Shown here in pieces: positions 19,770 through 34,718 of a DNA stretch of 37,902 bases. A program made the position numbers and the translations under genes. The notes beneath the pieces are model-generated. The model did no database searches and was not told where the DNA came from. It was given only the letters and a program-made list of their open reading frames with translations. Origin of the DNA: Hoeflea sp. (GTDB lineage Bacteria > Pseudomonadota > Alphaproteobacteria > Rhizobiales > Rhizobiaceae); NCBI RefSeq assembly GCF_014359905.1, contig NZ_JACIYP010000047.1, positions 1 to 37,902 of the forward strand, read 5' to 3'. Numbering within the stretch: the stretch's first letter is position 1; every line of letters starts with the position of its first letter.

Positions 19770-20774
19770 TCAAGCACCGATCGCGCGGATGGATTCAATC
19801 AACTCCCGATCCATGGGAATTCCGTTTTCGAGGAAATCCGCGCGGATCTGCTGACGCCGGCGTCCGGGCAGACGTGCGCCTTCCGTGCCCGCCACCATGT
19901 CGGCCATCACCGCCATGCGTTCGGCGCCGCCGGGTCCGAAGGCGTCCGGATCAATCGCGATGATCGCCTGCCCGGTTCCGGGCGGATCGCCCTTGTCGTC
20001 AAAGAAGGAACTCGCCTGCCAGGCATAGTTGGCCCCGGTCAGACCGGCGCACAACAGCTCCACCATCAAGGCCAATGCCGTGCCCTTGGCGTCGCCGAGC
20101 GGGATCATGGTCCCCGCCATCGCCGCCTTTGCGTCGGTGGTGGGATTGCCCTCCGGATCAAGCGCCCAGCCCTCGGGGATGGCCTCGCCCTTCTGGGCCG
20201 CCGCCATGATCTTGCCGCGCGCCACCTTGGACAGGGAGATATCGACCACCACCGGATCGCCGTCGGCGAGCGGCGCGGCAAAGGCGATCGGATCGGTGCC
20301 GAACAGCGGCCTGTTGCCGCCCCAGGGCGCCATCGCCGCCGGGGCATTGGCGACCATCAGCGCCGCCACGCCGCGCTCGGCGAGAGCTTCGACGATGACG
20401 CCAGCCACCCCGCAATGATGCGACCGGCGAATGCCGGCTATGGCGATGCCCTGGGTCTTCGCCGCCCCCGGCAGCCAGTCGAGCGCCAGGTCCATCGCCG
20501 GATAGGCAAACCCGTTGGCCGCATCGATTGCCAGCGCGCCCGGCCGAAGCTGCTCGCTTGTGGGCGCGGCGAAGCCATCGACCTTTCCTGCGCGCGCCTG
20601 GGCCGAATAGGCCTCCACCCGCCGCAATCCATGGCCGCCCTGACCCGCCAGTTCGGCCGCCAGCAGCGCGCGCGCCACCGAAGCCGCATTGTCTGCAGAC
20701 GTCCGGCTGCGCATCAGCGCACCGGTGATGAGTTCGGTAACTGCCCGGGGCGTCATCGTCAGCCTATCGGTCAT
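19770..20774 (-). CDS. comC: Ldh_2-family dehydrogenase, probable (R)-sulfolactate dehydrogenase
   Basis: A 334-residue NAD(P)-dependent 2-hydroxyacid dehydrogenase of the malate / L-lactate / sulfolactate family (Ldh_2 fold, unrelated to Rossmann lactate dehydrogenases). Typical segments are GGHGLRRVEAY, the catalytic His region IRRSHHCGVAG, NAPAAMAPWGG, and GTDPIAFAAP. It is the last gene of suyA-suyB-slcC-comC, overlapping slcC by four bases (ATGA). In Chromohalobacter salexigens the same pair, SlcC and ComC, interconverts (S)- and (R)-sulfolactate through sulfopyruvate before SuyAB acts. The assignment rests on this gene neighbourhood; the family alone would also allow malate or ureidoglycolate. 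Confidence 0.8.
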   Translation of the reverse strand: MTDRLTMTPRAVTELITGALMRSRTSADNAASVARALLAAELAGQGGHGLRRVEAYSAQARAGKVDGFAAPTSEQLRPGALAIDAANGFAYPAMDLALDWLPGAAKTQGIAIAGIRRSHHCGVAGVIVEALAERGVAALMVANAPAAMAPWGGNRPLFGTDPIAFAAPLADGDPVVVDISLSKVARGKIMAAAQKGEAIPEGWALDPEGNPTTDAKAAMAGTMIPLGDAKGTALALMVELLCAGLTGANYAWQASSFFDDKGDPPGTGQAIIAIDPDAFGPGGAERMAVMADMVAGTEGARLPGRRRQQIRADFLENGIPMDRELIESIRAIGA

Positions 20775-21703
20775 GCCTTGTTTCCCAGTACTTCCAGCAC
20801 CTTCTCGGCGATCAGACGGCTGACGCGTTCATTCGATTCATCCGTGACGCCGGCGATGTGGGGCGTCAGCACCAGATTGCCAAGATCCTTGAATTTCTCA
20901 CCGGCTTCGGCAGTCAGCGGTTCGGTCTCGAACACATCAAGCGCCGCGCCGCCAAGCTTGCCGGCCTTCAAGGCTTCTGCAAGAGCAGCTTCGTCGACGA
21001 TGCCGCCGCGCGCGGCATTGACGAGGATCGCATCCGGTTTCATCAGGGACAGCGCCTGGGCATCGATCATGTGCCGCGTCGCGTCGGTCAGTGGCGTATG
21101 CAGCGACACCACATCGGAGAGTTCCAGCACGGCATCAAGCGACACATTGCGGGCAATCTGCCAGCCGGGATGATCGGCCAACAGGTAAGGATCATAGGCC
21201 ACGACCTGCATGCCCATCATATGCGCCCGCCAGGCCACCTCGCGGGCAATCGAGCCATAACCGACAAGTCCGATGGTCTTGTCGGCAAGCTCCCGCCCCA
21301 TCATCGATTGCCGTGGCCAGCCGCCCGCGGCCACTTCCGCCGAGCGCAGGTAGGATCCGCGCAACAACATCAGCGCGGTCGTGATCACATATTCGGCGAC
21401 CGACAGATCATTGGCGCCCGTCGCCGGGATCACCTTGATCGACCGCGCCTTGCAGGCCGAGACATCGATGTTGTCGAGCCCGACACCGAGCCTCCCGACC
21501 ACGCGCAGCTTCGGTCCCATGCCGAGCAATGTTTCGCGCACCTGGGTGCGGTTGCGCACAATCAGCGCCCGCGCCGAGGTCAGATGCCCATGCAGCTTGG
21601 CCGGATCGTCGACCAGCGTGGGGTCATAAAGAGTGTCGTGAACCTGTGCGAGGCGGGCAACCGCCGCCTCGTCCATGAATTCGGTGATGACAATATCCGC
21701 CAT
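20771..21703 (-). CDS. slcC: D-2-hydroxyacid dehydrogenase, probable (S)-sulfolactate dehydrogenase
   Basis: A 310-residue dehydrogenase of the phosphoglycerate dehydrogenase family. The NAD-binding loop is GLVGYGSIA at 145-153, and the catalytic Arg, Glu and His are R232 (NAARGG), E261 (DVFETEP) and H282 (TPHIAG). It lacks the C-terminal ACT domain of serine-pathway SerA. Next to suyAB and a ComC-type enzyme, the expected reaction is oxidation of (S)-sulfolactate to sulfopyruvate, the first half of a two-enzyme racemisation. It starts 18 bases after suyB ends, in the same operon. Confidence 0.82.
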   Translation of the reverse strand: MADIVITEFMDEAAVARLAQVHDTLYDPTLVDDPAKLHGHLTSARALIVRNRTQVRETLLGMGPKLRVVGRLGVGLDNIDVSACKARSIKVIPATGANDLSVAEYVITTALMLLRGSYLRSAEVAAGGWPRQSMMGRELADKTIGLVGYGSIAREVAWRAHMMGMQVVAYDPYLLADHPGWQIARNVSLDAVLELSDVVSLHTPLTDATRHMIDAQALSLMKPDAILVNAARGGIVDEAALAEALKAGKLGGAALDVFETEPLTAEAGEKFKDLGNLVLTPHIAGVTDESNERVSRLIAEKVLEVLGNKA

Positions 21704-21721
21704 GGGAAACCCCTTGCCTGT

Positions 21722-22903
21722 TTACGCCGAGCGATAGAGCTTTGTCATGGAGAACTCGCGGTGACCGAGCGCCTCGGCGGCCGTGGCGCGGCCGTTCGAG
21801 GTGCGGATGATCATCTCGATCAGCGCATCGCCAGCCTCGTCGATGGTCATCTCGCGCCTCAGGATCCCGGAGACGTCGACATCGACATGCTCGCCCATGG
21901 TGCGGACCGTGCGCGGGTTGGCGGTGATCTTGATCACCGGCACGATCGGGTTGCCGATCACGTTGCCCTGGCCGGTGGGGAAGGTGTGCACCACATAGCC
22001 GCCGGCCGCCATCAGGGTGACGCATTCCGCAGCCGCGGAGGACGAGTCCATGAAGTAGAGGCCCTTGCCGGATTTCGGCTCTTCCGCAGGCTCGAGGATG
22101 TCGATGAACTGCGAGGTCCGGCCGATCTTCTCGAGATTGCCCAGCGCCTTCTCCTCGATCGTCGTCAGCCCGCCCTCGATATTGCCCTTGGTCGGCTGGC
22201 TGTCGGAAAGATCGTCGGTCTGGTGGGCGAAGATGACGTCGTCCTGGTAGGCCTTCCACATCGCGTACCAGCGCTCCCCCACCTCCTCGTTGATGGCGCG
22301 GGTCTTGCAGATGTGCTCGGCCCCGGTGATCTCCGAGGTCTCGCCGAAGCAGCCGTAGATGCCCTCGGGCAGGAGCTTGTCATACATGTTGCCCACCGTC
22401 GGGCAGGAGCCGAGCCCCGTGGTGGTGTCGCTCTCGCCGCATTTGGTCGAGATCCACAGTTCCGATATCGAGCACTCCTCGCGCTGCAGCTCGGAGGCGA
22501 AGTGGACATATTCCTTGGCCACCTTGGAAGCGTCCATGATGGTCTTGAGATCGCCGTTCTGCTCGATCGAGAAGCCGGTGACCGGCTTGCCGGTCGCGGC
22601 GATGCCGTCGACGATCTTCTTGGTCCAGCCCGGCTCGATGCCGATGACGACGACGGCGGCGACATTCGGGTTCGATCCGGTGCCGATCATGGTGCGGAAA
22701 TGCAGGTCGAGATCCTCGCCGAACTGCAGCCTTCCATAGGCATGCGGCAGCGCAAGCGTGCCCTTGATGTTGTTGGCCACCGCCTCGCAAGCCGCGTTGG
22801 AGATATCATCGACGGGCAGGATGACGACGAGATTGCGCACGCCGACCCGGCCGTTCTCGCGGCGGTAGCCGGAAAATGTCATGTTGGAATAGTTCGATGC
22901 CAT
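21722..22903 (-). CDS. suyB: (R)-sulfolactate sulfo-lyase, large subunit
   Basis: A 393-residue protein of the UxaA / galactarate dehydratase family, the size of SuyB (about 42 kDa) of Paracoccus pantotrophus. It begins with the family segment [19 protein letters not shown], contains [20 protein letters not shown], where Cys residues may hold an iron centre as in related hydro-lyases, and ends with [25 protein letters not shown]. With SuyA it splits (R)-3-sulfolactate into pyruvate and sulfite, releasing the sulfonate sulfur. I start at the ATG at 22903, which has AGGAG eight bases ahead, ten bases after suyA. Altronate dehydratase is the main alternative, but the sulfolactate dehydrogenase neighbours favour SuyB. 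Confidence 0.87.
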
Positions 22904-22913
22904 GATCGGGCTC

Positions 22914-23201
22914 CTACCAGCGCTTGGTTTTGAGATTGTGGGTGTGGACATGGGCGCCCTTCTCGACGTCGGCGACGAACTTGCCGATGTCCTCGCCATA
23001 TTTGATCGCCGTGTCGCCGGACTTGATGTCCTTGAGCGCGATCTTGTGGCCGATCGGCACGTCGGCCTTGGACGTGAGCTCGAAGCTCGAATTGTCGTGC
23101 GTGACCACGCACAGCATGTTTGTTCCGGCCGTCAGGCCTTCGACAACCACAACGCCGACATTGTCCGCGTGATCATGAACCAGCAAATGGGGGGTGCTCA
23201 A
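22914..23201 (-). CDS. suyA: (R)-sulfolactate sulfo-lyase, small subunit
   Basis: A 95-residue SAF-domain protein, the separate N-terminal module of the UxaA family. It shows the typical [15 protein letters not shown] start, the segment [23 protein letters not shown] and the end [12 protein letters not shown]. SuyA of about 8-10 kDa pairs with SuyB in sulfolactate sulfo-lyase. Translation must start at the TTG at 23201: no ATG or GTG is available ahead of the conserved residues, and a strong GGAGGA lies six bases upstream. The promoter (TTGACA at 23289-23294 on this strand, a TTATAT ten-box at 23265-23270) overlaps the palindromic operator of the neighbouring GntR regulator. Confidence 0.88.
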
Positions 23202-23252
23202 TTTTGTCCTCCAATCAGGATTTACTGCAATGATTCACTGTCCGGTGGACAG

Positions 23253-23273
23253 GTCTTATATAAGATATAAGAT
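23253..23273. promoter_or_regulatory. Operator site 1 and suyA promoter
   Basis: GTCTTATATAAGAT followed directly by a further ATAAGAT, so about one and a half copies of the palindrome TCTTATATAAGA overlap. For the suy operon a TTGACA box at 23289-23294 stands 18 bases from a TTATAT box that lies inside this site. The site is also about 35 bases ahead of the divergent GntR gene, which suggests autoregulation. The same palindrome recurs at 29272, 31609 and 33618. Confidence 0.8.
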
Positions 23274-23306
23274 GGGTCGGGACGGGAATGTCAACCGCGG
23301 CGAAGC

Positions 23307-24144: not shown

Positions 24145-25230
24145 TCACAACGGGATCGCCTGGCCGGTCTTGACCGATTGCTCTGCGGCAAGGCCGATCC
24201 GCACCGACTTCAATCCGTCCTCCAGCGTCACCTCCGCAACGCCGCCGTCACGGATCATGGCGTTAAACCTCAGGTGCTGGAAATAGGTCGAGCCGTGATG
24301 ATCGCCGGCGGCCAGGAACGCGGCGTCGACATCGACGATCTCGCGGCGCTCCTGCTTGCTCGCACGCGGCGAGAACACGAATTCCGAATGCCGCTGCTTG
24401 CCATCCTGCGAAAACCGCGACGGCCCGGGCACCAGCGCCTCGACCTTGGCGAGATCGCCGGTGACGGCGATCGCCTCCTGCCAGGTAGAGCCTTCGGCGA
24501 ACATGCACAGATCGAGCATGCCGCGCACGCCATTGGCGAAATCGATCACCACATAGGCATTGTCGAGAATGTCGGGCTTGCGGCCGGCGTAATCCTCATC
24601 GCGGAAATTGACGTCCGCACCGCCCGACGCATAGACGCGGACCGGCTCGGCTCCGGCGATCAGCCGCATCAGATCGAAGAAATGGCAGCATTTCTCGACC
24701 AGCGTGCCGCCGGTATTGGATTGGAACCGGTTCCAGTCGCCGACCTTCTTGAGGAACGGAAACCGGTGCTCGCGGATCGAGATCATCCGCACCTGCCCGG
24801 CATCTCCGCAGTTCACTGTCCTGAGCAGCCGCTCGACGGGGGGCATGTATCGGTATTCCATGGCGACCCAGACCTGCGACGAACGTCCTGCGGCGAGCGC
24901 CAGCACTTCCTCGCAATCCGCGAGCGTCGTACACAACGGCTTTTCCACCAGCACCGGAAGATCCGCGGGCAGCACGTCCTTGAGGATTGCGTGGTGGACA
25001 TGGTTGGGTGCCGCGATCACAAGCGCGTCGCACAGACCGGAGTGAAGCAGCGCTCGGTGATCCGTGAACACGCCACAGCCGCCGCCCGCCAGCGCCGCCG
25101 CGCTCGACCGCATGCCCTCGTCGGGATCGGCAACCGCGGTCACCCGCGCGCCCGCGATCAGGCCGATATTGCGGATATGCTCATGGCCCATCATGCCCGA
25201 GCCGATGATGCCGTATCTGATCCCTGTCAT
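24145..25230 (-). CDS. Gfo/Idh/MocA-fold protein, candidate NAD+-dependent sulfoquinovosidase
   Basis: A 361-residue oxidoreductase-fold protein. The NAD loop is GIIGSGMMG (7-15), followed by AAPNHVHH and the family motif EKP at 96-98; SNTGGTLVEKCCHFFDLMRLI carries the conserved His (H183) of the C-terminal sheet domain. A family of such proteins (GH188) was recently described as sulfoquinovosidases that use NAD+ for transient oxidation at C3, often encoded in sulfosugar gene clusters that lack a GH31 enzyme. No GH31 gene is visible here, and this gene sits ten bases behind the isomerase, so that role is attractive. A plain sugar or inositol dehydrogenase is the alternative. The ATG at 25230 is chosen because longer starts overlap the isomerase without added homology. 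Confidence 0.75.
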   Translation of the reverse strand: MTGIRYGIIGSGMMGHEHIRNIGLIAGARVTAVADPDEGMRSSAAALAGGGCGVFTDHRALLHSGLCDALVIAAPNHVHHAILKDVLPADLPVLVEKPLCTTLADCEEVLALAAGRSSQVWVAMEYRYMPPVERLLRTVNCGDAGQVRMISIREHRFPFLKKVGDWNRFQSNTGGTLVEKCCHFFDLMRLIAGAEPVRVYASGGADVNFRDEDYAGRKPDILDNAYVVIDFANGVRGMLDLCMFAEGSTWQEAIAVTGDLAKVEALVPGPSRFSQDGKQRHSEFVFSPRASKQERREIVDVDAAFLAAGDHHGSTYFQHLRFNAMIRDGGVAEVTLEDGLKSVRIGLAAEQSVKTGQAIPL

Positions 25231-25240
25231 GGATGGCGCC

Positions 25241-26629
25241 TCAGAGGTGGATGACCGGCAGGCCGGCGGCAACGGCAAAGCTCTCGAGCCTCGCGACGTG
25301 ATCGCCATAGGCCAGCGCCATATGGTGCTCGAGCCCGCTGTCGATGACGCGCATGAGTACCTCGCCCGCCGGGCGCTCGAACCGAACGACGCCGGACGTT
25401 CCGGTAAAGGCCATGGCGCGTTTGAGCATCTCGCCGCGCCCCAGGATCAGGCTATGGCTGCCGCGCGCCTGGCTCAGCCGTGCGAAGGTGACGACGCCCG
25501 GCTTGAGCGGGAATTCGAACAGCAGCGGCATTTTCCGGTTTGTGTGAATGGTTGCGCGGGCGACCGCATCGGGATCGGCCATCGAGACCGGCGCCTGGCC
25601 GCAATGCCAGACCACGCCCGTGTCATCGTCCGCGTCGAGGTCGACCAGATCGACCAGAAACACCGGCTGATCGCTCGCCCCCTGCAGCAGGAGCTGCGTC
25701 GCCGCGCCATAGACATCGGCCTCGCAGGCGCAGGGCACGCGTCCCTCGCCCATCATCGAGGCCGGACCGCAGACCGCGCCGCCATAGTCGGTGAAGGTTT
25801 CCGGCCAGCAGCGGATGGCGAAGGCATCGAATCCGCCCTCGGCCCTCATGGCGTCAAGCGCGAGTTTCAGCCTCAGCGATCGATCAAGCTCCGACTGGTC
25901 GACCGCGTCGAGATTTGTGAGGCTTTCGGCCGTTTTCGCGCGCAATGCATCCGCGTCCACATCCGGCGCCGCAAGCGCCCGGGAGAACAGCTCCGAAAGC
26001 TCATAGCCCGACACAGTGATGCCGGTCAGCGCGGCCAGTTGCGTGGCATCATAGGCGCAGGTGTCAAACCCGTCGGGATGCTGCCCGATGCGGGCGATGG
26101 CCTTGCCGCGCAAGCCCTCAAGCAACGCCCTGCCCGGTTCCGGATCGGCGTCTCCCGGGGCCGCCATCAAGGGAACACTCATCCGCGCTGCAGCGAACAG
26201 CGTCTCCAGCCCCGGCGCGCCTGGCGCGGCGTAGCGCCAGGAAAACAACCGTCCGCGCAGACCCAGGGCATGCGAGGCGAGATTGAGGCCGCAAAAGGCG
26301 TTGAGCCGCAGCCGGCCGCCGAGCCGCGGCTCGGGCACCGCCCATATGGCCAGGGGCTGGCCAAAGCTCTCGGCGATGCGGCAGGTCATCGCCGCATCGG
26401 TGAATGTGACCTGCAGGATCAGGATCCGGTCCGGCTTTTCGTCCGCGATCCCGGCCATCGCCGCCTGCGTCGACGCCGCATCCATCAGCAGAGTCTGCGG
26501 TCCGATCAGGCGGTGGCCGGTGGCCTTGAGATCGTCGAGCATGCCCGCGAGCATCTGCTCGGCATAGGCCACATCGAATGTCGGGCGACCCAGCGGCAAC
26601 ACCCCGATTGTCAGAACTTCACCGGACAT
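25241..26629 (-). CDS. FucI/AraA-fold sugar isomerase, candidate sulfoquinovose isomerase
   Basis: A 462-residue protein of the L-fucose / L-arabinose isomerase superfamily. The metal site can be traced: E303 in CACEADVYGA, D327 in FLVDLVDLD and H342 in WHCG; the 24-residue gap between Glu and Asp is the same as in E. coli FucI (E337, D361). The N-terminal part shows the family's ILILQVTFTD and LWAxPE-like (IWAVPEPRLGGRLRLN) segments. Placed with a sulfofructose kinase and aldolase, its likely reaction is sulfoquinovose to 6-deoxy-6-sulfofructose; classical sulfo-EMP uses an unrelated AGE-type isomerase (YihS). The ATG at 26629 is favoured since AAGGGGG lies seven bases ahead; the ATG at 26635 is too close to it. 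Confidence 0.78.
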   Translation of the reverse strand: MSGEVLTIGVLPLGRPTFDVAYAEQMLAGMLDDLKATGHRLIGPQTLLMDAASTQAAMAGIADEKPDRILILQVTFTDAAMTCRIAESFGQPLAIWAVPEPRLGGRLRLNAFCGLNLASHALGLRGRLFSWRYAAPGAPGLETLFAAARMSVPLMAAPGDADPEPGRALLEGLRGKAIARIGQHPDGFDTCAYDATQLAALTGITVSGYELSELFSRALAAPDVDADALRAKTAESLTNLDAVDQSELDRSLRLKLALDAMRAEGGFDAFAIRCWPETFTDYGGAVCGPASMMGEGRVPCACEADVYGAATQLLLQGASDQPVFLVDLVDLDADDDTGVVWHCGQAPVSMADPDAVARATIHTNRKMPLLFEFPLKPGVVTFARLSQARGSHSLILGRGEMLKRAMAFTGTSGVVRFERPAGEVLMRVIDSGLEHHMALAYGDHVARLESFAVAAGLPVIHL

Positions 26630-26675
26630 GCGCATGCCCCCTTACATCACCGGGTAAAACCACTAGATTGGAACC

Positions 26676-27266
26676 ATGAAAATGATCCCGAGACGCTGGC
26701 CCCTGGCCGTCCTCCTCGCCATGGCAATCGTCGTTGTCGCCATGCCTACCAGAAGCTTCGCCACCGAGGCGGCCTGGGCGCGGCTGGCGCAGGGCGGCTA
26801 CACGATCCTGCTCAGCTTTGCGCACACGCCGGGCGGGGGCGAGCCGCTGAGACCCGACCTTGGCGATTGCGAAGAGCGCAAGAGCCTGTCCGACAGGGGA
26901 ATCCAGGCGGCGCGCCGCCTCGGCATGCGCTTTGCCGCCCGCGCCGTCTCGATCAACGCAGTCTATTCCGGAGAGTTCTGCCGTGCGCTGAAGACGGCCG
27001 AACTCGCCTTTGGCAGCAGCGCGGTCGAGACCAGAGCCTATCTCAATTCGATCGTCGGCGGCGCCGACCCGAATGAAATTCCCGCCGAGCTGATCATGGC
27101 GGTCGAGGAATTCGACGGCGCCGGCAATCAGCTGATGATCACGCACCCGGTCCTGATCAACGCCATCTCCGGGACCACCCCCCGCGTCGGGGAGGCCATC
27201 ATCATCGCCCGCGGCGTCAACCCGGGCGACCCGCCGCGTGTCATCAACCGGTTGTTGCTCGACTGA
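26676..27266 (+). CDS. Exported histidine-phosphatase-like protein lacking the RH motif
   Basis: A 196-residue protein with an N-terminal signal peptide (about 1-30, ending near SFATEA) and a histidine phosphatase (phosphoglycerate mutase) fold. The GDCEERKSLSDRGIQAARRLG and YSGEFCRALKTAELAFG segments and the second catalytic His (H157 in MITHPVL) fit the family. Where relatives read LLRHAxTPGGG, this protein reads LLSFAHTPGGG, so the phospho-accepting His and its Arg are replaced by F48 and S47. It may be inactive or use H50. It lies on the plus strand inside the minus-strand sulfosugar genes, between the isomerase start and the aldolase stop, so its transcript would be antisense to any aldolase read-through. 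Confidence 0.75.
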   Translation: MKMIPRRWPLAVLLAMAIVVVAMPTRSFATEAAWARLAQGGYTILLSFAHTPGGGEPLRPDLGDCEERKSLSDRGIQAARRLGMRFAARAVSINAVYSGEFCRALKTAELAFGSSAVETRAYLNSIVGGADPNEIPAELIMAVEEFDGAGNQLMITHPVLINAISGTTPRVGEAIIIARGVNPGDPPRVINRLLLD

Positions 27267-27274
27267 TCCACGCA

Positions 27275-28309
27275 TCAGCCGAAATCCCCGTAGCTGTGGC
27301 GAAAACTCTGGTCCGCCGGGGAAAGCTGCGCGCCGCCTGCCCCATACGCCGGATGACTATTCCACGGCCTCGCCGCCTGGTCGGTCAGTAGGTTGATCTC
27401 CCGCATATAGCGCACAGAGTCGATTTCGAGCCCCTTTCGCATCCCATCCCAGTCCGGATAGAGCCCGAACGGCTCAAGCCAGATCGCCCGGCCGGCAAGA
27501 TAGCCCGAGGCGCCGGCGCGGTAGGCATGGCTCAGGATATTGCGGAACTCCGCCTTGCCGGCGCCGGCCGACAGCATCACCCAGGGTCTGCCAGCCAGCC
27601 GTCCCATTTCGTCGAACGCCGCCTGCACCGCGGCGTCTTCGCCCTCAGGCACATTCTTCGCCGCAACCGGACTTTCCAGCTTGAAGACATCGATGCCGAA
27701 TTCCGGGCCGGCAAAATCGGCCACCGATTGCAGCACGTGATCGGTGCGCTTGCCGGTCATCTCGACATAGTCGCTGGTCTGGTGCGCGTCATTGGCCAGG
27801 GGATAGACCAGCAGCTCGAACAGGAACGGGATGTCAAAGCGCGCGCAGGCCTCGCCGATCCGCTTGGTGAAATCCTTCTGTTGCTCACGGATATGCCTGG
27901 CCGCATCCGGCCGGTACCAGGCCAGCACCTTGACTGCGTCGCCGCCCATCCGCTTGATCTTGGCCACCGACCAGTCATCGATCTCGCGTGACAACCTTCC
28001 CTCCGGCGTCTCCTCGAACACCGAATCCTCCAGCGTCACGATCAGCCCCTTGGTGGGCGACAGCTTGCCGATGCCGCGCGGGATGGCGAAATGCGGATCG
28101 AGCAGCATCGCCGAGGATTGGTCCTGCAGGGTCTCGATCAGCAGGGCCTTGAAATCGGCCACCGCCTGCCAGGGCGCGTCATCTGCCCCGTGGTATCTGG
28201 CGATCGGCCCCTTGATCGGCGGCCGCTGATCCACCGCCGTCATCTTGAAAAGACCGCCCGCATCGGCCATCCGCCGCATGCCCCACAGTTTTCCCGCGCT
28301 CAGCTGCAT
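27275..28309 (-). CDS. LacD/YihT-type class I aldolase, probable sulfofructose-1-phosphate aldolase
   Basis: A 344-residue class I aldolase of the DeoC/LacD fold. The Schiff-base Lys is K210 in GIDVFKLESP; AVDQRPP (24-30), GGDAVKVLAWYRP (122-134), PFLFELLVYP and AGASGYLAGRAIW (266-277) are the matching barrel strands also seen in tagatose-bisphosphate aldolase and in YihT. Given the sulfofructose kinase directly upstream (ten-base overlap, so coupled translation), it should cleave 6-deoxy-6-sulfofructose 1-phosphate into dihydroxyacetone phosphate and sulfolactaldehyde. It is about 50 residues longer than YihT and closer in length to LacD, so it is a distinct branch; tagatose-type activity cannot be excluded from sequence alone. 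Confidence 0.83.
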   Translation of the reverse strand: MQLSAGKLWGMRRMADAGGLFKMTAVDQRPPIKGPIARYHGADDAPWQAVADFKALLIETLQDQSSAMLLDPHFAIPRGIGKLSPTKGLIVTLEDSVFEETPEGRLSREIDDWSVAKIKRMGGDAVKVLAWYRPDAARHIREQQKDFTKRIGEACARFDIPFLFELLVYPLANDAHQTSDYVEMTGKRTDHVLQSVADFAGPEFGIDVFKLESPVAAKNVPEGEDAAVQAAFDEMGRLAGRPWVMLSAGAGKAEFRNILSHAYRAGASGYLAGRAIWLEPFGLYPDWDGMRKGLEIDSVRYMREINLLTDQAARPWNSHPAYGAGGAQLSPADQSFRHSYGDFG

Positions 28310-29205
28310 GGTCGGGCCTCTTTCATGAAATGTCCGGTCTCATTGCGCGTCGGATAGCCGGCGCGGCCATCGGTTCTCGTGCACTTGATCGCCGCCACCG
28401 CATTGGCAAAACGGATCGCGTCAGCGGGCAGTGCGCCTTCGCCCAGCCGCAATGCGAAGGCACCGTGCCAGACGTCGCCCGCACCCAGCGTGTCGAGTGC
28501 CGTGATCCGATAGGCGGGCTCGAACCCGGATGCGGCGCCATGGCGCCAGCGCACGCCGTTTGCGCCATCGGTGACGCAGACAAAGCTGCCGGTCTCAGCT
28601 GCAACATCGGCGAGCGCCCGACCGAGATCCGCATGGCCGGCCCAATCGCGCAACCCTTGCGCCGAGAAGGCGACATGGCTCGCGAGATGGAGCGCTGCTT
28701 CCGCCTCGCGGATCGGCGCCTCCGCGTCGAGCACGCCGGGCAGGCCGCGAGCCCTTGCAACACGCATCAGAGCCTCGGCGCCGTCGGGCCAGCGCGTGTC
28801 GGCAAGTGCCGCGTCAAAGTCGGGGGGCAGGGCGGCCTCGAGCCAGCCCGCCTGCATCGGCAAGGCATGATCGCGGAAATTGACGATCTGGCGTTCGCCC
28901 GCTTGATCGATGAAGACGGAGGAGAAGGAGGATCGCCGGCCCTCGAAGCGGCGGACCATGCTGCAATCGACGCCTTCGGCTTCAAGCCCCGCGGCAATCA
29001 TGTCGGCGACCTGATCATCGCCCAGACGACTGGCAAGCATGGCCTGGCCTCCGAGCCTCGCAATGGCAGCCGCAGCATTGGCCGCGCCGCCGCCGCCGGT
29101 GATCCGGGCGTCGCGGGCCCGGTATTTCTCAGCCAGCCGCGGCATCTCGTCGAGGAAGAAGACGAAATCCACCACGGCGACCCCGGCAGTCACGATCCTC
29201 ACCAT
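28300..29205 (-). CDS. yihV: PfkB-family 6-deoxy-6-sulfofructose kinase
   Basis: A 301-residue ribokinase-family sugar kinase. It matches E. coli YihV, as I recall that sequence, over nearly the whole length without large gaps. The residues reported to hold the sulfonate in YihV (K27, N109, R138) fall at the same numbers here: K27 in AEKYRARD, N109 in RQIVNFRD, R138 in LADTRWPDG. The ATP and catalytic-base motif is DTLGAGDVWHGAFAL, with the catalytic Asp in GAGD, and the C-terminus reads KCTRTDGRAGYP. It phosphorylates sulfofructose at C1. An operator palindrome lies 66 bases upstream within a promoter-like stretch, and the aldolase overlaps its end. This is the strongest marker for sulfoquinovose use in the window. 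Confidence 0.9.
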   Translation of the reverse strand: MVRIVTAGVAVVDFVFFLDEMPRLAEKYRARDARITGGGGAANAAAAIARLGGQAMLASRLGDDQVADMIAAGLEAEGVDCSMVRRFEGRRSSFSSVFIDQAGERQIVNFRDHALPMQAGWLEAALPPDFDAALADTRWPDGAEALMRVARARGLPGVLDAEAPIREAEAALHLASHVAFSAQGLRDWAGHADLGRALADVAAETGSFVCVTDGANGVRWRHGAASGFEPAYRITALDTLGAGDVWHGAFALRLGEGALPADAIRFANAVAAIKCTRTDGRAGYPTRNETGHFMKEARPCS

Positions 29206-29398: not shown

Positions 29399-29605
29399 AT
29401 GGGCATCGTGAAAATCGACGATGACCTGCACGAACAAGCCCGGCGGGCGAGCACCGTGATGTGCCGGTCCATCAATGCGCAGGCCGAGTACGGGATGAAG
29501 GTCGGCATGCTGGCCGAGGCCAATCCGACGTTCAGATTCAACGACATCGTCAAGCTGCAGTTCGCCGCGGCGCGGGTAAGCCCCGCCGACCTGGCGGCGG
29601 CCTGA
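29399..29605 (+). CDS. ParD-like antitoxin-family protein
   Basis: A 68-residue protein starting MGIVKIDDDLHEQARRASTVMCRSINAQAEYG, a ribbon-helix-helix type sequence of the ParD_like family. GGAG lies before the ATG. It ends one base before the start of the decayed methionine aminopeptidase gene. In many proteobacteria a ParD-like gene of this kind stands directly before a type I methionine aminopeptidase, so the pair is a known neighbourhood and not a classical ParDE module; no ParE toxin is seen. Whether it still has a function without an intact partner is unclear. Confidence 0.75.
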   Translation: MGIVKIDDDLHEQARRASTVMCRSINAQAEYGMKVGMLAEANPTFRFNDIVKLQFAAARVSPADLAAA

Positions 29606-29606
29606 C

Positions 29607-30433
29607 ATGGTCAAGTCCGCGGACGAACTGGCGCTCATGCGGGTCTCGGGCTCGCTGCTCGCATCCGTCGTCGAGATGCTGGACACACTGGATCTTGCCG
29701 GCATGTCGCCTTGCAGGTCAATGATCTGGTCGAGCGCTTTATCACCATCGACCTGGCCGCCCGCCCGGCCAGCAAGGGGCAGTATGGCTTCGAATAGGGT
29801 CTGAACTGCTCGATCAATGATGTCGTCTGCCACGGAAAGCCCGACCCGCAGGAGATCATCCGCGACGGCGACATCATCAACCTCGACATCACGCTGGAGA
29901 AGAACGGCTTCATTGCGGATTCGAGCAAGACCTATCTGGCCGCCAGGGCCTCGCCCGCCGCCGAGCGGCTGGTGCGGGACGCCCGGGAGGCAATGTGGAA
30001 GGGCATCAGGCAGGTGCGACCCGGCGCCTATCTCGGCGACATCGGCTTCGCCATCGAACGCCATGCCAGACGCAACGGCTACTCGGTGGTGCGGGAATAT
30101 TGCGGCCATGGCATCGGCCGCGCCATGCACGAGGAGCCGCAGGTCCCCAGTTTCGGACGTCCAGGAACGGGCTTGAAGCTGCGCCAAGGCATGGTCTTCA
30201 CCATCGAGCCGATGGTCAACCAGGGCACGCGCAGGGTCTCGACCAGGGATGACGGCTGGACGGTCGTCACCAACGACGGCAAGCTCTCCGCCCAGTTCGA
30301 GCATACGGTGGCTGTCACGAAAAAGGGTGTCGATGTCCTGACCCTAAGCCACGACGAGACGGTGATGGTGGAGCGCAGAGTCCAGTCATCGGTCGGCACC
30401 GATATGGGCAAAGTCCCGCCAAGACCGGCCTGA
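29607..30433 (+). pseudogene. map: Type I methionine aminopeptidase, broken by frameshift and stop
   Basis: The reading frame starts MVKSADELALMRVSGSLLASVVEMLDTLDLAGMS and then shifts near 29707-29711 into LQVNDLVERFITIDLAARPASKGQYGFE, which meets a TAG at 29795-29797 where homologues have a codon for Tyr or similar. The same frame then continues without interruption to 30433. All five metal ligands remain: the two Asp in NLDITLEKNGFIADSS, the His in YCGHGIGRAM, the Glu in FTIEPM and the Glu in SAQFEHT. Two separate lesions make a real pseudogene more likely than one sequencing error. The retained ligands suggest recent decay. A complete map gene is presumably present elsewhere. Confidence 0.85.
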
Positions 30434-30440
30434 TGACAGA

Positions 30441-30474: not shown

Positions 30475-30493
30475 AGCATTCCGGCTGGAGCTT

Positions 30494-31573
30494 CTACTGC
30501 ATGTCCTTCATGGCGCCGCCGTCGATCATGTCCGAGGCCTTGGCGGCTTCCGCAACCAGCAGATCGTAGAAGGTGGCTCCGCCCTCGACATTGGCCTGGA
30601 ACCAGTCGAACACCGGCGCTGCGGCTTCCTTGAACTGGGCCTTCTCCTCCATGGTCGGCACATAGACCGAGCCGCCGCCCTCGGTGAAGGCCTTGTAGGC
30701 CTCGATAGACTTGCGCTTGGGCGATGCGAAGGTCGCCTGCTGGAGCGCAGCAAACCCGTCGACGACGACCCGGCGCTGGCCTTCATCCAGGCCCATGAAG
30801 CGGTCATTGTTCATGTACCACAGTGCGCCCATGTAGGAATGACCGTCGAGCGTGAGATATTTCAGCCCCGCATCGGGGAACTTCATGCCCATGATGTCGG
30901 TGATGCCATTCTGCGTGCCCTCGACGACGCCGGTCTGGAACGAGGTGAACAGTTCCGGCCACGGAATCGGCGTCGGCGAGGCGCCCATCGCGCGCACCAG
31001 TTCCTGCGGCAGGTCGGCCACCACGGTGCGGATCTTCAGCCCCTCGAGATCGGCCGGCGAACGCACTTCGCGCTTGATGTTGGCGAAGTTGCGCCAGCCG
31101 CCGGTATTGCCGATGGTCATCAGGCGAATCATGCCGCCCGAATCGGCCAGCATCTGTTCACGCATGGCGCGCACGAAGGTCCCCTCGGTCAGCACCGCCT
31201 CGGCGATCCGGTCGTCGCGCAAGAGATAGGGCAGATCCAGAACCTGCACATAGGGGAAAATCCCCGAGGCGCCGCCCGAGGTGGAGATGTAGATGTCGAT
31301 CGAGCCGTCGGCGATGCCCTGCAGGCATTCGGCGCCGGTCGAGCAGAGCTGGGTGCCGATGAAGAGTTCCACCGCAATGGCGCCGTTCGATGCCTTTTCA
31401 ACATAGTCCTTGAACACAACAAGACCGTCGTAATCCTCATCGTTCTCGTTCGAATTCGCGGTGGCGCGCAGCGTGATGTCGGCCGCCTGCGCCGTAGTGA
31501 TGGCGCCACCAGCCAGAACCGCAAGACCGAGGGCAGCCGCGCTCAGTGTCTTCATTGCCTGTTTCAAGATCAT
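30494..31573 (-). CDS. dctP: TRAP solute-binding protein of the sulfosugar island
   Basis: A 359-residue periplasmic binding protein of the DctP family with a signal peptide (about 1-28, MILKQAMKTLSAAALGLAV to AQA). The ligand-binding Arg region is GLKIRTVVADLPQELVRAMGASP, followed by PIPWPELFTSFQTGVVEGTQNG. GGAGGT precedes the ATG at 31573. The operator palindrome GTCTTATATAAGAC lies 36 bases upstream of the start, so this gene has its own regulated promoter, separate from dctQM. TRAP systems import several C2 and C3 sulfonates, and the expected ligand here is sulfoquinovose, a sulfoquinovosyl glycoside or sulfolactate; the sequence does not decide between them. Confidence 0.9.
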   Translation of the reverse strand: MILKQAMKTLSAAALGLAVLAGGAITTAQAADITLRATANSNENDEDYDGLVVFKDYVEKASNGAIAVELFIGTQLCSTGAECLQGIADGSIDIYISTSGGASGIFPYVQVLDLPYLLRDDRIAEAVLTEGTFVRAMREQMLADSGGMIRLMTIGNTGGWRNFANIKREVRSPADLEGLKIRTVVADLPQELVRAMGASPTPIPWPELFTSFQTGVVEGTQNGITDIMGMKFPDAGLKYLTLDGHSYMGALWYMNNDRFMGLDEGQRRVVVDGFAALQQATFASPKRKSIEAYKAFTEGGGSVYVPTMEEKAQFKEAAAPVFDWFQANVEGGATFYDLLVAEAAKASDMIDGGAMKDMQ

Positions 31574-31608
31574 CGTTGAACCTCCCGTTTGATGACTGCT
31601 TCCCGGTA

Positions 31609-31622
31609 GTCTTATATAAGAC
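31609..31622. promoter_or_regulatory. Operator site 3, before dctP
   Basis: A perfect 14-base palindrome, GTCTTATATAAGAC, 36 bases before the dctP start and identical to sites 2 and 4. Confidence 0.82.
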
Positions 31623-31691
31623 ATACGATTGATGAGCGTCTGGCGCTTGTCAAGCTTTGACGCCCTTCCCGCCCCCTGACAGGCGGCGCCC

Positions 31692-32981: not shown

Positions 32982-32985
32982 CGCC

Positions 32986-33573
32986 CTACTCCACCGCCAC
33001 CAGCACGCGATCATGATCCTCGGGCAGGTCCGCCTCCGGATCGATGATATGGGCGATGGCCTTGAGGCAGAGCTCGACATTGACAAAGCTCATCAGCAGC
33101 AACCCGACCGGCAGCGACATGTACATCCAGGCCAGCTTGACGCGCACGAGCCCCAGGCCGAGAAAATCGAGCGGGAGTTTCAGCGAACTGGAATTGAACA
33201 GCCAGCCCGAACTGACATGGTTGAGGCCAAGCCGGAAGCCATAGACCAGTACCACCAGGGAAACGAACAGCAGCAAAAGGCCCAGAAGCGACCCGAGCCT
33301 CGGCGGCAACAGGTCCTTGAGCATGTCGATCGCCACGAACCCGCCCCAGCGATAGGCCGACGGCGCGATCAGCCCGGTCATCCACAGCATCAGGAAGCGG
33401 GAGGCTTCGTCCGGCCAGGCCAGCGCATTGTTGAAGACATAGCGGAAGATCACCTGCAGCATGATGATCACCACCATCAGCCCCATGGCCATCCAGGCGG
33501 CATTTCGCCCGATGCGCAGAAGCAAGGTGTTGAGCAGCGCGAGTGGCTTCAGCACCGTCAGAATCGCGGTCAT
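32986..33573 (-). CDS. dctQ: TRAP small membrane subunit of the sulfosugar island
   Basis: A 195-residue DctQ protein with four predicted membrane helices (about 20-45, 60-80, 95-120 and 145-170) and the family stretch QVIFRYVFNNALAWPDEASRFLMLW. GGAGGA stands nine bases before the ATG at 33573. The operator palindrome lies about 45 bases upstream. The C-terminal tail is acidic (DPEADLPEDHD) and longer than usual. Confidence 0.88.
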   Translation of the reverse strand: MTAILTVLKPLALLNTLLLRIGRNAAWMAMGLMVVIIMLQVIFRYVFNNALAWPDEASRFLMLWMTGLIAPSAYRWGGFVAIDMLKDLLPPRLGSLLGLLLLFVSLVVLVYGFRLGLNHVSSGWLFNSSSLKLPLDFLGLGLVRVKLAWMYMSLPVGLLLMSFVNVELCLKAIAHIIDPEADLPEDHDRVLVAVE

Positions 33574-33617
33574 GGTCTTGGTCCTCCCCAGAGCCAACAG
33601 CCAAAACACCCCATCAA

Positions 33618-33631
33618 GTCTTATATAAGAC
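33618..33631. promoter_or_regulatory. Operator site 4, before dctQM
   Basis: A perfect palindrome, GTCTTATATAAGAC, 44 bases before the dctQ start, between dctQ and the mutarotase stop. Confidence 0.82.
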
Positions 33632-33707
33632 CTGTGCCATGGGCTTCCATTTTGGGGCATCTGTCAATGCCGGTCGTGCCGATACAGAGCGGCACATCCC
33701 GCTTTGG

Positions 33708-34718
33708 TCAGCTGCGGATGAACACATGCTCTGTGTGCTGGACCCGCTTTTCGCCCGGCCGGAGCACAGCGCCGGCAAAGCCCGCGTGATTGGGACTGTC
33801 CGGCCAGCTCTGGGTTTCGAGGCAGAACCCGGCACAGGGGCCATAGGGCTTGCCGCCCAGGCCCGGAACCGACGGCTTGATCTTGAAGCCGGAATAGAAC
33901 TGCAGGCCCGCCTCGGTGGATCTGAGCTCCATGGCGATGCCCGAGCGCATCGACCGCGCCAGCGCGATGGTGCGCACCGGCTCCCGCCCGTCGGAAATGC
34001 AGAAATTGTGGTCGTAGGGCACCTGCTGCCCGTCAGGCCCGTCGCGGCGGATCGGCCGCAATTCGCGGAAATCGAAATCCGTGCCCGCGACAGCCTTGAT
34101 CTCGCCCGTGGGGATCTGGTCCGCGTCGACGGGGAGATAATGATCGGCGGCGATCATCAGCTCGTGGTCGAGGATGGTGTCGGATCCGTCGAGATTGAAA
34201 TAGCTGTGGTGGGCGATATTGGCGAGCGTCGGCCGGTCGGTGACGCTGGTATAGGTGATGGCCATGCAGCCGCCCGGGCGCAGCTCGTAGCGGGCTTCGA
34301 TTTTCATCGTGCCCGGATAGCCCGACTGCCCGTCCGGATCGACGATCGACAACACCGCGTGATCGGCGCCATGGCTGTCAATCGTCCAGATGCGCTTGGC
34401 AAGCCCGGCACTGCCTCCATGCAGATGCGTGATGCCGCGCTCGTTGCATTCCAGCTGATAGGCGACACCGTCCAATGTGAACCGGCCCCCCGCGATCCGG
34501 TTGGCATGCCGGCCAGCGGTCTGACCGAAATAGGGGGAAGCGGGATAGCCGGCAAAATCTGGAAAGCCGAGCGTCAGGGGTGCTGCATGTCCTTCCAGCC
34601 GCAGCTCCTGCAGGGCGGCGCCCCAGGTCATGATCCGTGCGGTCAGTCCGCCGCCTTCGAGAGTGACCCGATGCACCGTCTCGCCATCTGCTGTCTGGCC
34701 AAATTCCTCGATCGCCAT
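33708..34718 (-). CDS. Aldose 1-epimerase (mutarotase)
   Basis: A 336-residue mutarotase of the GalM family, which interconverts the alpha and beta anomers of an aldose. Visible features are GRHANRIAGGRFTLDG, THLHGG, the catalytic His in NIAHHSYFNLDG, the Asp in FDFREL and the catalytic Glu in FCLETQSWPDSPNH. Mutarotases of this fold accompany sulfoquinovose clusters (YihR in E. coli) because sulfoquinovosidases release one anomer while the isomerase may need the other. It is the most upstream gene of the minus-strand island; no operator palindrome precedes it, so its link to the regulon rests on position alone. GGGAG lies eight bases ahead of the ATG at 34718. Confidence 0.85.
   Translation of the reverse strand: MAIEEFGQTADGETVHRVTLEGGGLTARIMTWGAALQELRLEGHAAPLTLGFPDFAGYPASPYFGQTAGRHANRIAGGRFTLDGVAYQLECNERGITHLHGGSAGLAKRIWTIDSHGADHAVLSIVDPDGQSGYPGTMKIEARYELRPGGCMAITYTSVTDRPTLANIAHHSYFNLDGSDTILDHELMIAADHYLPVDADQIPTGEIKAVAGTDFDFRELRPIRRDGPDGQQVPYDHNFCISDGREPVRTIALARSMRSGIAMELRSTEAGLQFYSGFKIKPSVPGLGGKPYGPCAGFCLETQSWPDSPNHAGFAGAVLRPGEKRVQHTEHVFIRS

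What the first reader, a model, noticed from the sequence alone, without database searches (positions are those of the whole stretch)
19770..34718. Sulfosugar island joining sulfo-EMP glycolysis to sulfolactate cleavage
In one 15 kb block I see a mutarotase, TRAP importer, YihV-like sulfofructose kinase, LacD/YihT-like aldolase, FucI-fold isomerase, Gfo/Idh/MocA candidate glycosidase, and then suyAB, slcC and comC. Classical E. coli sulfo-EMP excretes dihydroxypropanesulfonate, and sulfolactate is usually degraded by a different organism. Here the upper and lower halves are adjacent and share an operator, which predicts that one bacterium takes plant sulfolipid sugar to pyruvate, DHAP and sulfite. 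The seen part is the genes and order; the route is inferred from named families.
Basis: partly seen in the sequence, partly recalled or inferred. Interest (0 to 1): 0.92.

Follow-up and report, generated by a model that had tools for sequence, protein, structure and literature searches.

The report
Sulfosugar-to-sulfite gene island in Hoeflea-like bacterium
A marine bacterium carries, under one shared DNA switch, the genes to take in and split the plant sulfolipid sugar sulfoquinovose and then the genes to cleave sulfite off the leftover three-carbon piece, although the enzyme for the step that joins the two halves is missing from the island.

Summary
On the minus strand, 19770-34718 encodes a GalM-type mutarotase, TRAP importer, PfkB kinase closest to YihV, LacD-type class I aldolase, AraA/FucI-fold isomerase, GH188-type sulfoquinovosidase and suyA-suyB-slcC-comC; a divergent GntR/UTRA gene lies between the halves. 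A perfect palindrome, TCTTATATAAGA, precedes suyA/gntR, kinase, dctP and dctQ; the 6.86 Mb genome has no other exact copy. Among 80 relatives' loci, all 20 with this gntR have it and none of the other 60. Kinase-aldolase-isomerase-GH188 occur together in 62 of 80 loci; two Nitratireductor loci hold the whole enzyme set. GH188's sulfonate-binding residues are conserved, so sulfoquinovose is the likely substrate.

The weak point is sulfolactaldehyde to sulfolactate. No aldehyde dehydrogenase lies in the window or in ten Hoeflea loci as far as held, although 31 of 80 loci carry a GabD-type one. The genome's own GabDs fall in a sister clade. The "complete in one bacterium" idea and a near-identical actinobacterial gene set are already in print as predictions. 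I rate this a well-supported new variant of hybrid sulfo-EMP plus sulfolactate cleavage, not a new kind.

The parts
33708..34718 (-). galM-type aldose 1-epimerase (candidate sulfosugar mutarotase)
   Evidence: PF01263 E=2.2e-77; GalM model 240 bits, below its 398 cut-off; galM hit in 43 of 80 relatives' loci
33619..33630 (.). operator TCTTATATAAGA, 45 bases before dctQ
   Evidence: exact match
32986..33573 (-). TRAP transporter small permease DctQ (start chosen by eye)
   Evidence: PF04290 79 bits
31692..33014 (-). TRAP transporter large permease DctM (start uncertain)
   Evidence: PF06808 398 bits
31610..31621 (.). operator TCTTATATAAGA, 36 bases before dctP
   Evidence: exact match
30494..31573 (-). 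TRAP solute-binding protein DctP (start chosen by eye)
   Evidence: PF03480 177 bits
29273..29284 (.). operator TCTTATATAAGA, 67 bases before the kinase
   Evidence: exact match
28300..29205 (-). PfkB-family kinase, candidate sulfofructose kinase (YihV-like)
   Evidence: best PDB match 7ag6 sulfofructose kinase 207 bits, next 2rbc 162 bits, then ribokinase 84 bits; residues aligned to YihV K27, N109 and R138 kept (their role recalled)
27275..28309 (-). class I aldolase, LacD/DeoC family, candidate sulfofructose-1-phosphate aldolase
   Evidence: PF01791; NF009498 331 bits over its cut-off 184; PDB 8tnf 308 bits, LacD 119-131, YihT 66-67
25241..26635 (-). AraA/FucI-fold isomerase, candidate sulfoquinovose isomerase (SqvD/SftI-like)
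   Evidence: NF048012 sulfoquinovose isomerase E=3e-74, 250 bits, cut-off 700; AlphaFold model pLDDT 92.7 matches L-arabinose/L-fucose isomerases, TM-score to query 0.52-0.59
24145..25233 (-). GH188-type NAD+-dependent sulfoquinovosidase (SqgA-like)
   Evidence: 8qc3 420 bits, 8qc2 408 bits; sulfonate-binding R, L and K conserved (with PMC10755693, PMC11465081)
23307..24068 (+). GntR/UTRA transcriptional regulator, candidate repressor of the island
   Evidence: PF00392 + PF07702; co-occurs with the operator in 20 of 20 loci
23254..23265 (.). operator TCTTATATAAGA between gntR (41 bases) and suyA (52 bases)
   Evidence: exact match
22914..23201 (-). suyA, small subunit of (R)-sulfolactate sulfolyase (TTG start)
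   Evidence: N-terminal match to TIGR03248, 39.9 bits; 76% to the small UxaA protein beside suyB in P. seriniphilus
21722..22903 (-). suyB, large subunit of (R)-sulfolactate sulfolyase (start chosen by eye)
   Evidence: PF20629 + PF04295; 80-82% to UxaA-family/dehydratase proteins of four Paracoccus plasmids, 67.5% to one of Cupriavidus pinatubonensis
20771..21703 (-). slcC-like D-2-hydroxyacid dehydrogenase, candidate (S)-sulfolactate dehydrogenase
   Evidence: best models PGDH/2-hydroxyacid dehydrogenase, below cut-off; 61% to the hydroxyacid dehydrogenase near suyAB in P. seriniphilus
19770..20774 (-). comC, candidate (R)-sulfolactate dehydrogenase
   Evidence: best model NF040650 L-sulfolactate dehydrogenase 178 bits, cut-off 500

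Best explanation
The island is one regulon for full use of sulfoquinovose (SQ) and its glycosides. A TRAP importer brings in SQ or sulfoquinovosyl glycerol. The GH188 enzyme frees SQ, GalM equilibrates its anomers, and the AraA/FucI-fold isomerase makes sulfofructose. The YihV-like kinase makes sulfofructose-1-phosphate, and the LacD-type aldolase splits it into DHAP and (S)-sulfolactaldehyde. An aldehyde dehydrogenase outside the island oxidises this to (S)-sulfolactate; the enzyme is not identified, and a GabD paralogue is the default guess. SlcC and ComC convert (S)- to (R)-sulfolactate through sulfopyruvate, and SuyAB cleaves it to pyruvate and sulfite. The divergent GntR protein represses suyAB-slcC-comC, the kinase-aldolase-isomerase-GH188 run and the TRAP genes by binding TCTTATATAAGA, and is released by a pathway intermediate. 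Shown here: gene order, families, conserved residues, operator sites and conservation across genomes. Inferred: substrate, direction, regulator binding and flux.
For: The families match in order. GH188 carries the sulfonate triad and the catalytic motifs (roles from PMC10755693). The kinase is closest to sulfofructose kinase among solved structures. The isomerase's only NCBIfam match is sulfoquinovose isomerase, and its predicted fold is AraA/FucI. In L062 the isomerase homologue sits beside TRAP genes and a PRK10426 gene scoring 990 bits against a 553 cut-off (NCBI calls the model alpha-glucosidase, that it is YihQ's is recalled). Kinase+aldolase+isomerase+GH188 occur together in 62 of 80 loci, with suyB in 15 and with gabD in 25 of those. 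Nitratireductor L103 and L131 hold kinase to comC plus gabD and galM in one locus, without TRAP hits. The exact operator is in 20 of 20 gntR loci and 0 of 60 others, and at only four places in the home genome. suyB is present in 25 of 35 genomes with the cluster; 9 of the other 10 have xsc above its cut-off, but so do 19 of the 25 with suyB.
Against: No aldehyde dehydrogenase in the window, none in ten Hoeflea loci as far as held, no convincing further operator site in the genome, and no GabD of the island-linked clade among the home genome's matches. The isomerase scores 250 bits against a 700-bit equivalog cut-off, and ComC 178 against 500. The aldolase is closer to LacD, an enzyme of unsulfonated tagatose bisphosphate, than to YihT. 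No YeiH-type sulfite/sulfate exporter is in the island; the genome's one PF03601 match is on another contig (TauE-type exporters were not searched). In 10 of 35 genomes with the upper module no suyB was found, and 1 of those had neither suyB nor xsc over its cut-off (G430, whose suyA runs off a contig end), so the two halves are not obligatorily coupled. In the draw the same-family genomes shown, all of other genera, lacked the isomerase.
Confidence: 0.74

Rival explanations
1. The two halves work side by side rather than in series: the sugar module yields DHAP and a C3 sulfonate that is excreted, while suyAB-slcC-comC degrades sulfolactate taken up from outside. One regulator senses a shared C3 sulfonate.
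For: The joining enzyme is absent from the window and from ten Hoeflea loci as far as held. The gntR-suyA-suyB-slcC-comC module exists without hits to this kinase, aldolase, isomerase or GH188 in 29 kb stretches of plasmids of Paracoccus seriniphilus and Sinorhizobium mexicanum, the latter with two exact operator copies, so the regulator plausibly came with the sulfolactate half.
Against: The operator also precedes the kinase and the TRAP genes; an organism that encodes SuyAB would gain nothing by excreting its substrate; loci that also hold gabD exist in Nitratireductor and a GabD fragment lies at the edge of the S. mexicanum stretch.
Confidence: 0.14
2. The sugar is not sulfoquinovose but its C4 epimer sulfofucose (or another 6-sulfohexose), handled by an EMP-like route through sulfotagatose and its 1-phosphate, as was considered but not supported in Paracoccus wurundjeri.
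For: Isomerase of the arabinose/fucose-isomerase fold and LacD/tagatose-type aldolase; PMC12421959 names a PF00294 kinase and a PF01791 aldolase in the same cluster as suyAB in a sulfofucose degrader.
Against: FlSqgA (GH188) cleaved SQ glycosides and not the glucosides or glucuronide tested, and its residues are kept here (PMC10755693; sulfofucosides were not mentioned in the parts read); SqvD, the SQ isomerase of sulfo-EMP2, is of the same family (PMC9594981); the P. wurundjeri kinase and aldolase were not raised on sulfofucose (PMC12421959 section 6); a relative pairs the isomerase with a PRK10426 gene.
Confidence: 0.09
3. A variant of the best explanation, not exclusive of it: sulfolactaldehyde is oxidised by the three-subunit molybdenum hydroxylase at 11145-14987, whose best NCBI models are glyceraldehyde dehydrogenase subunits; sulfolactaldehyde is a glyceraldehyde analogue.
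For: Best NCBIfam matches are alpha/beta/gamma glyceraldehyde dehydrogenase, all below cut-off; small and large subunit hits lie behind comC and the second TRAP set in four Hoeflea loci.
Against: The large subunit is present in 18 of 18 genus genomes including the four without a kinase match, so it is not tied to the island; no operator in front of it; it is separated by a second TRAP set and a flavin monooxygenase.
Confidence: 0.04
4. The upper half degrades an unsulfonated sugar (tagatose- or fuculose-like) and lies beside a sulfolactate module by chance.
For: LacD-type aldolase and GalM-type mutarotase are generic sugar enzymes.
Against: Shared operator, GH188 with sulfonate triad, YihV-like kinase, conservation of the block in 62 of 80 loci.
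Confidence: 0.02

Closest known systems
GH188 'Y160' gene cluster of Actinobacteria bacterium IMCC26103 (PMC11465081, predicted only)
   Same: GH188, fucose isomerase, SF kinase, SFP aldolase, D-3-phosphoglycerate dehydrogenase (the SlcC type), both sulfolactate sulfolyase subunits and a regulator in one cluster
   Different: That cluster has ABC transporters, an SLA dehydrogenase and a Tyr in place of the sulfonate-contacting Leu; ComC is not listed. Here: TRAP importer, ComC present, Leu kept, no SLA dehydrogenase, operator-defined regulon, Alphaproteobacteria
Sulfo-EMP (E. coli YihSTVU; Arthrobacter AK01)
   Same: YihV-type PfkB kinase and a class I aldolase; GH188 as in Arthrobacter
   Different: AraA/FucI-fold isomerase instead of YihS; LacD-type aldolase; no SLA reductase (E. 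coli) or linked SLA dehydrogenase (Arthrobacter); product inferred to be cleaved instead of excreted
Sulfo-EMP2 (Bacillus urumqiensis, Megamonas)
   Same: FucI-family SQ isomerase (SqvD type)
   Different: PfkB kinase instead of PfkA-type SqiK; class I instead of class II aldolase SqiA. Hybrids of the two enzyme sets are in print for Proteobacteria (PMC10599462 section 12, PMC9594981 passages)
Tandem sulfofucolytic ED - sulfolactate sulfolyase pathway, Paracoccus wurundjeri (PMC12421959, demonstrated)
   Same: SuyAB, SlcC and ComC downstream of a sulfosugar pathway in one bacterium; the SLA dehydrogenase is missing there too
   Different: Upper half is an Entner-Doudoroff route for sulfofucose; ABC importer; no operator described in the sections read
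Extended sulfo-TAL clusters of Thermotogae/Chloroflexi with SuyAB (PMC9594981 section 11) and Ensifer HO-A22 (PMC10599462 section 12)
   Same: Sulfoglycolysis plus a sulfonate-degrading module in one genome
   Different: Transaldolase or ED upper halves; Ensifer pairs sulfo-ED with a DHPS degradation cluster

Membership tests
GH188 NAD+-dependent sulfoquinovosidase | full-length homology to SqgA | tested here: met
   420 bits over residues 4-360 of 362 to 8qc3
GH188 NAD+-dependent sulfoquinovosidase | sulfonate triad R166, L170, K172 | tested here: met
   HRFPFLKK in the window aligns with HRFPFLHK (roles from PMC10755693, PMC11465081)
GH188 NAD+-dependent sulfoquinovosidase | catalytic motifs (Tyr136, Glu189, His193, His321) | tested here: met
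   EYRYMPP, VEKCCHFF and HHGSTY blocks identical in the alignment (position numbers assigned by my count from the chain)
GH188 NAD+-dependent sulfoquinovosidase | NAD+-dependent cleavage of SQ glycosides | not testable with these tools
   needs enzyme assay
Sulfo-EMP | YihV-type sulfofructose kinase | tested here: met
   best PDB match 7ag6 207 bits; K27, N109, R138 kept while 2rbc lacks the Asn (residue roles recalled, paper not held)
Sulfo-EMP | YihT-type class I aldolase | tested here: inconclusive
   same superfamily, but LacD subfamily scores far higher than YihT
Sulfo-EMP | YihS (AGE-family) isomerase | tested here: not met
   AraA/FucI fold instead; the rest of the genome was not searched for YihS
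Sulfo-EMP | SLA reductase YihU or linked SLA dehydrogenase | tested here: not met
   no PF00171 match on this contig, none in ten Hoeflea loci as far as held; no reductase of that kind among the island genes; no dedicated YihU search was run
Sulfo-EMP2 | SqvD-type isomerase | tested here: inconclusive
   NF048012 250 bits, cut-off 700
Sulfo-EMP2 | SqiK (PF00365) and SqiA (PF01116) | tested here: not met
   PF00294 kinase and PF01791 aldolase instead
SuyAB sulfolactate cleavage with SlcC/ComC | adjacent suyA and suyB | tested here: met
   same order in P. seriniphilus
SuyAB sulfolactate cleavage with SlcC/ComC | SlcC and ComC dehydrogenases | tested here: inconclusive
   ComC best model is L-sulfolactate dehydrogenase but below cut-off; SlcC matches PGDH-type models below cut-off; order conserved
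Extended (tandem) sulfoglycolysis | every step from sugar to sulfite encoded in the cluster, SLA oxidation included | tested here: not met
   SLA dehydrogenase not linked; genome GabDs in sister clade. Met in Nitratireductor L103/L131 at family level

The most novel reading that the evidence does not exclude
A whole sulfoquinovose-to-sulfite pathway is run as one GntR regulon in Hoeflea-type bacteria, with a TRAP transporter as the sulfosugar importer and with sulfolactaldehyde oxidised by an enzyme that is not an orthologue of the island-linked SlaB/GabD-type dehydrogenases, which would also bear on the gap left open in Paracoccus wurundjeri.
Probability: 0.3. Interest if true: 0.66.

Novelty: new variant of a known kind. 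Interest (0 to 1): 0.5.

Why it matters
Sulfoquinovose is made on the scale of billions of tons a year (PMC10755693), and its breakdown by C-C cleavage is usually described as two-tiered: one organism excretes C3 sulfonate and another cleaves it. A conserved, single-operator island that holds both tiers in marine Alphaproteobacteria with culturable members (Hoeflea, Nitratireductor) makes single-organism mineralisation directly testable. It nominates a TRAP sulfosugar importer and isolates one missing step, sulfolactaldehyde oxidation, for biochemical hunting. Surveys seeded with SLA dehydrogenase genes and their neighbours (as in PMC10599462 section 12) would miss Hoeflea-type clusters.

Tried and rejected
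Molybdenum hydroxylase as the SLA oxidase: attractive because its best models are glyceraldehyde dehydrogenase subunits, but its large subunit is in all 18 genus genomes, including four without a kinase match (G434, G436, G441, G443), and has no operator. Kept only as a weak variant.

Operator-guided search for the missing dehydrogenase: the only other near-match in the genome (C479:14508, one mismatch) lies near a dnaJ-like gene and a tRNA-Val gene; judged chance. That contig also holds an aldehyde dehydrogenase about 10 kb away.

GabD of the home genome: the two closest, one beside a class III aminotransferase (C112) and one beside an iron alcohol dehydrogenase (C523), sit in a sister clade of the island-linked GabDs, so they look like succinate-semialdehyde enzymes of other pathways. 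Not excluded as moonlighting.

Contamination or mis-binning (bin contamination 8.29): rejected, since 14 of 18 genus genomes (home genome included) have the kinase and Hoeflea loci are syntenic. The name Hoeflea is inferred from named relatives; the home genome itself is unnamed.

Rows dropped: 20 of the 31 isomerase-positive genomes (home genome among the 31) were taken for neighbourhoods; 39 of 80 loci plus the window went into alignment A2 (L139 left out for an internal stop). In the GabD tree, hits at or below 350 bits or with ORFs of 440 aa or fewer were dropped (L076; a short piece in L084). L048 and L110 are probably the same genome, so one GabD is counted twice there. L129 was not searched (not held). 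L090's 31% gntR hit was counted as 'without gntR'. The one search counts rest on bit-score thresholds I set.

Full report
What is there. The window is C412:1-37902 of a draft genome (6.86 Mb, 552 contigs, contamination 8.29). On the minus strand between 34718 and 19770 it reads galM, dctQ, dctM, dctP, kinase, aldolase, isomerase, GH188, suyA, suyB, slcC, comC; gntR lies divergently between GH188 and suyA. The kinase and aldolase overlap, slcC and comC overlap, and suyA, suyB and slcC are at most about 20 bases apart, so long transcription units are likely (inference from coordinates). A small gene (histidine-phosphatase-like by eye, no Pfam match) lies antisense between aldolase and isomerase. 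A ParD-like gene and a broken M24 peptidase lie antisense between dctP and the kinase.

Identity of the parts. The Gfo/Idh/MocA protein matches the GH188 sulfoquinovosidase structures 8qc3 and 8qc2 at 420 and 408 bits. The residues that contact the sulfonate in ArSqgA (Arg166, Leu170, Lys172) and the blocks around Tyr136, Glu189, His193 and His321 are kept; I read their roles in PMC10755693 (parts 1-3 of 4) and PMC11465081 (part 1 of 2, which holds the article body). The kinase's best solved relative is sulfofructose kinase YihV (207 bits), ahead of 2rbc (162) and ribokinase (84); the YihV positions K27, N109 and R138 are conserved (their role is recalled, the paper is not held). The isomerase has no sequence relative in the PDB up to E=1, but its only NCBIfam match is sulfoquinovose isomerase (250 bits, cut-off 700). 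Its AlphaFold model (mean pLDDT 92.7) matches L-arabinose and L-fucose isomerases (TM-score to query 0.52-0.59), the family of SqvD (PMC9594981, passages and section 11 read). The aldolase belongs to the PRK12858 tagatose-diphosphate subfamily (331 bits, cut-off 184) and is more distant from YihT (67 bits). SuyB is 80-82% identical to proteins on four Paracoccus plasmids, annotated UxaA family (three) or galactarate dehydratase (one). On the P. seriniphilus plasmid the order gntR, suyA, suyB, two tripartite tricarboxylate transporter genes, hydroxyacid dehydrogenase, Ldh-family oxidoreductase, putative sulfate exporter is annotated.

The operator. TCTTATATAAGA occurs exactly four times, 36 to 67 bases before dctP, dctQ, suyA (with gntR 41 bases away on the other side) and the kinase (starts of dctP and dctQ chosen by eye). 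There is none before galM, the isomerase or GH188. The chance expectation with two mismatches allowed is 0.08. The rest of the genome has no exact copy and one 1-mismatch copy; the reversed control word has 3 matches at up to one mismatch. Across 80 loci fetched with the isomerase alignment (330 relatives were found in all, best 80 kept), the exact word is in 20 of 20 loci with this gntR and 0 of 60 without; 5 of those 60 have a one-mismatch site. The S. mexicanum sulfolactate cluster, with no kinase, aldolase, isomerase or GH188 hit in the 29 kb fetched, carries a 55% identical GntR and two exact copies. This suggests that the regulator came with the sulfolactate half and later took over the sugar half (inference).

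Conservation. The nine best hits are named Hoeflea (74-87% isomerase identity), a tenth Hoeflea stands at 65%, and 14 of 18 genomes of the home genus, the home genome included, have the kinase. The window's genes and those of Hoeflea sp. M_23 differ mostly at third codon positions, with one 3-base gap in galM and no other gaps (14 genes). In the 80 loci, kinase is in 73, aldolase 72, GH188 70, dctP 60, dctM 58, slcC 52, galM 43, gabD 31, gntR 20, suyB 16, comC 12; kinase+aldolase+isomerase+GH188 in 62, of which 15 also have suyB and 25 gabD, three of them both. These counts rest on my bit-score thresholds and are limited by contig ends: 56 of 80 loci are 19 kb or longer. Nitratireductor alexandrii and N. 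arenosus (L103, L131) have kinase, aldolase, isomerase, GH188, gntR, suyAB, slcC, comC, gabD and galM in one run, without TRAP hits. In a separate draw of 397 genomes of the order, 31 had the isomerase, the home genome among them; the other same-family genomes shown, all of other genera, did not. Of 20 neighbourhoods fetched from those, L055, L056, L058 and L060 hold kinase through comC; L058 and L060 have a GabD next to comC, and L055, L058 and L060 a PF03601 exporter-like gene between suyB and slcC. Of 35 genomes searched, 25 have suyB. Of the 10 without, 9 have sulfoacetaldehyde acetyltransferase xsc above its cut-off, the end of a different known route from sulfopyruvate (recalled); but 19 of the 25 with suyB have xsc too, so this is weak evidence.

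The gap. Sulfolactaldehyde must be oxidised to sulfolactate before SlcC can act. None of the genome's 26 aldehyde dehydrogenase matches is on this contig. There is none in ten Hoeflea loci (L066-L075) or in L077, L101, L125 within the stretch held. In a tree of 49 GabD-type proteins the 34 island-linked ones and L156 form one clade (support 0.99). The home genome's two closest GabDs fall in its sister group (support 0.91) with those of other Hoeflea and one Nitratireductor. L156, from H. alexandrii, is the only Hoeflea protein with the island-linked ones, and it lies about 0.8 Mb from suyB on the same contig. The same step was reported missing in P. wurundjeri (PMC12421959 section 11). I therefore leave this step unassigned.

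Substrate. GH188 (FlSqgA) is active on sulfoquinovosides and inactive on the glucosides and glucuronide tested (PMC10755693). In L062 the isomerase sits with TRAP genes and a PRK10426-family GH31 gene (990 bits, cut-off 553; that this model is YihQ's is recalled); L061 and L064 have GH31 genes at similar places. Sulfofucose remains possible but is less supported.

Prior art. PMC11465081 (2024) lists an actinobacterial cluster with GH188, fucose isomerase, SF kinase, SFP aldolase, both sulfolyase subunits and an SLA dehydrogenase. PMC9594981 (2022) describes extended sulfo-TAL clusters with SuyAB. PMC10599462 (2023, section 12) suggests Ensifer HO-A22 as a complete mineraliser and says hybrid sulfo-EMP clusters occur in Proteobacteria. 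PMC12421959 (2025; abstract, sections 6, 10, 11 and part 1 of 12 read) demonstrates tandem sulfofucose degradation and calls coexistence of the two tiers in one bacterium unusual. I also read sections 8 and 12 of the review PMC12890257 and passages of PMC13372026 and PMC8873060. I found no paper joining sulfoquinovose with a TRAP importer (search listing: one paper holding both terms, a taurine-respirer study, not opened). For Hoeflea or Nitratireductor as sulfoquinovose degraders, the 12 of 19 papers listed hold no occurrence of sulfoquinovose; the other 7 were not seen. The library holds only openly licensed papers.

Verdict.

Noticed in passing
window 555-5580 (+): Tn7/Tn5053-like transposition genes: rve-domain transposase (just under its cut-off), TniB, TniQ, in DNA of 0.53-0.55 G+C against 0.60-0.67 in the other 2-kb blocks.
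   Followed up: no
window 29399-30433 (+): ParD-like antitoxin gene followed by an M24 peptidase (methionine-aminopeptidase-like) remnant with internal stops, between dctP and the kinase; an intact M24 ORF lies at the same place in L070:6253-7029.
   Followed up: partly
window 26676-27266 (+): Small protein with a signal-peptide-like start (by eye), weakly PRK06193-like (58 bits, cut-off 178), antisense between aldolase and isomerase; a homologue is found in 19 of 80 relatives' loci. Function in the pathway unknown.
   Followed up: partly
L192 (Zymomonas mobilis ZM4 plasmid pZZM402, 128-10448): Class II aldolase, aldose epimerase, isomerase 38% identical to the window's, GH188-like protein (49%), TonB receptor and succinate-semialdehyde dehydrogenase close together: looks like a sulfosugar cluster on a Zymomonas plasmid.
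   Followed up: partly
L190 (Paracoccus seriniphilus plasmid p420573): Around suyAB: mandelate racemase/muconate lactonising family protein, aldolase/citrate lyase family protein, SDR and succinate-semialdehyde dehydrogenase, reminiscent of the sulfofucolytic ED set of PMC12421959.
   Followed up: no
L062 9341-15897: Isomerase homologue + TRAP genes + PRK10426-family GH31 gene without kinase or aldolase hits nearby; L061 and L064 have isomerase, TRAP and GH31 genes likewise. The lower pathway there is unclear.
   Followed up: partly
L086, L088, L089, L093, L106, L114, L130, L143, L144: Rhodobacteraceae-type loci with the upper module (most with gabD and/or slcC) in genomes with xsc over its cut-off and no suyB found, which suggests a second kind of lower half.
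   Followed up: partly
window 36629-37000 (-): Death-on-curing family toxin-like protein (TIGR01550 54.8 bits, over its cut-off).
   Followed up: no
window 11145-19733: Molybdenum hydroxylase (three subunits) and a second TRAP set with a flavin monooxygenase; the large subunit is present in 18 of 18 genus genomes, substrate unknown.
   Followed up: partly
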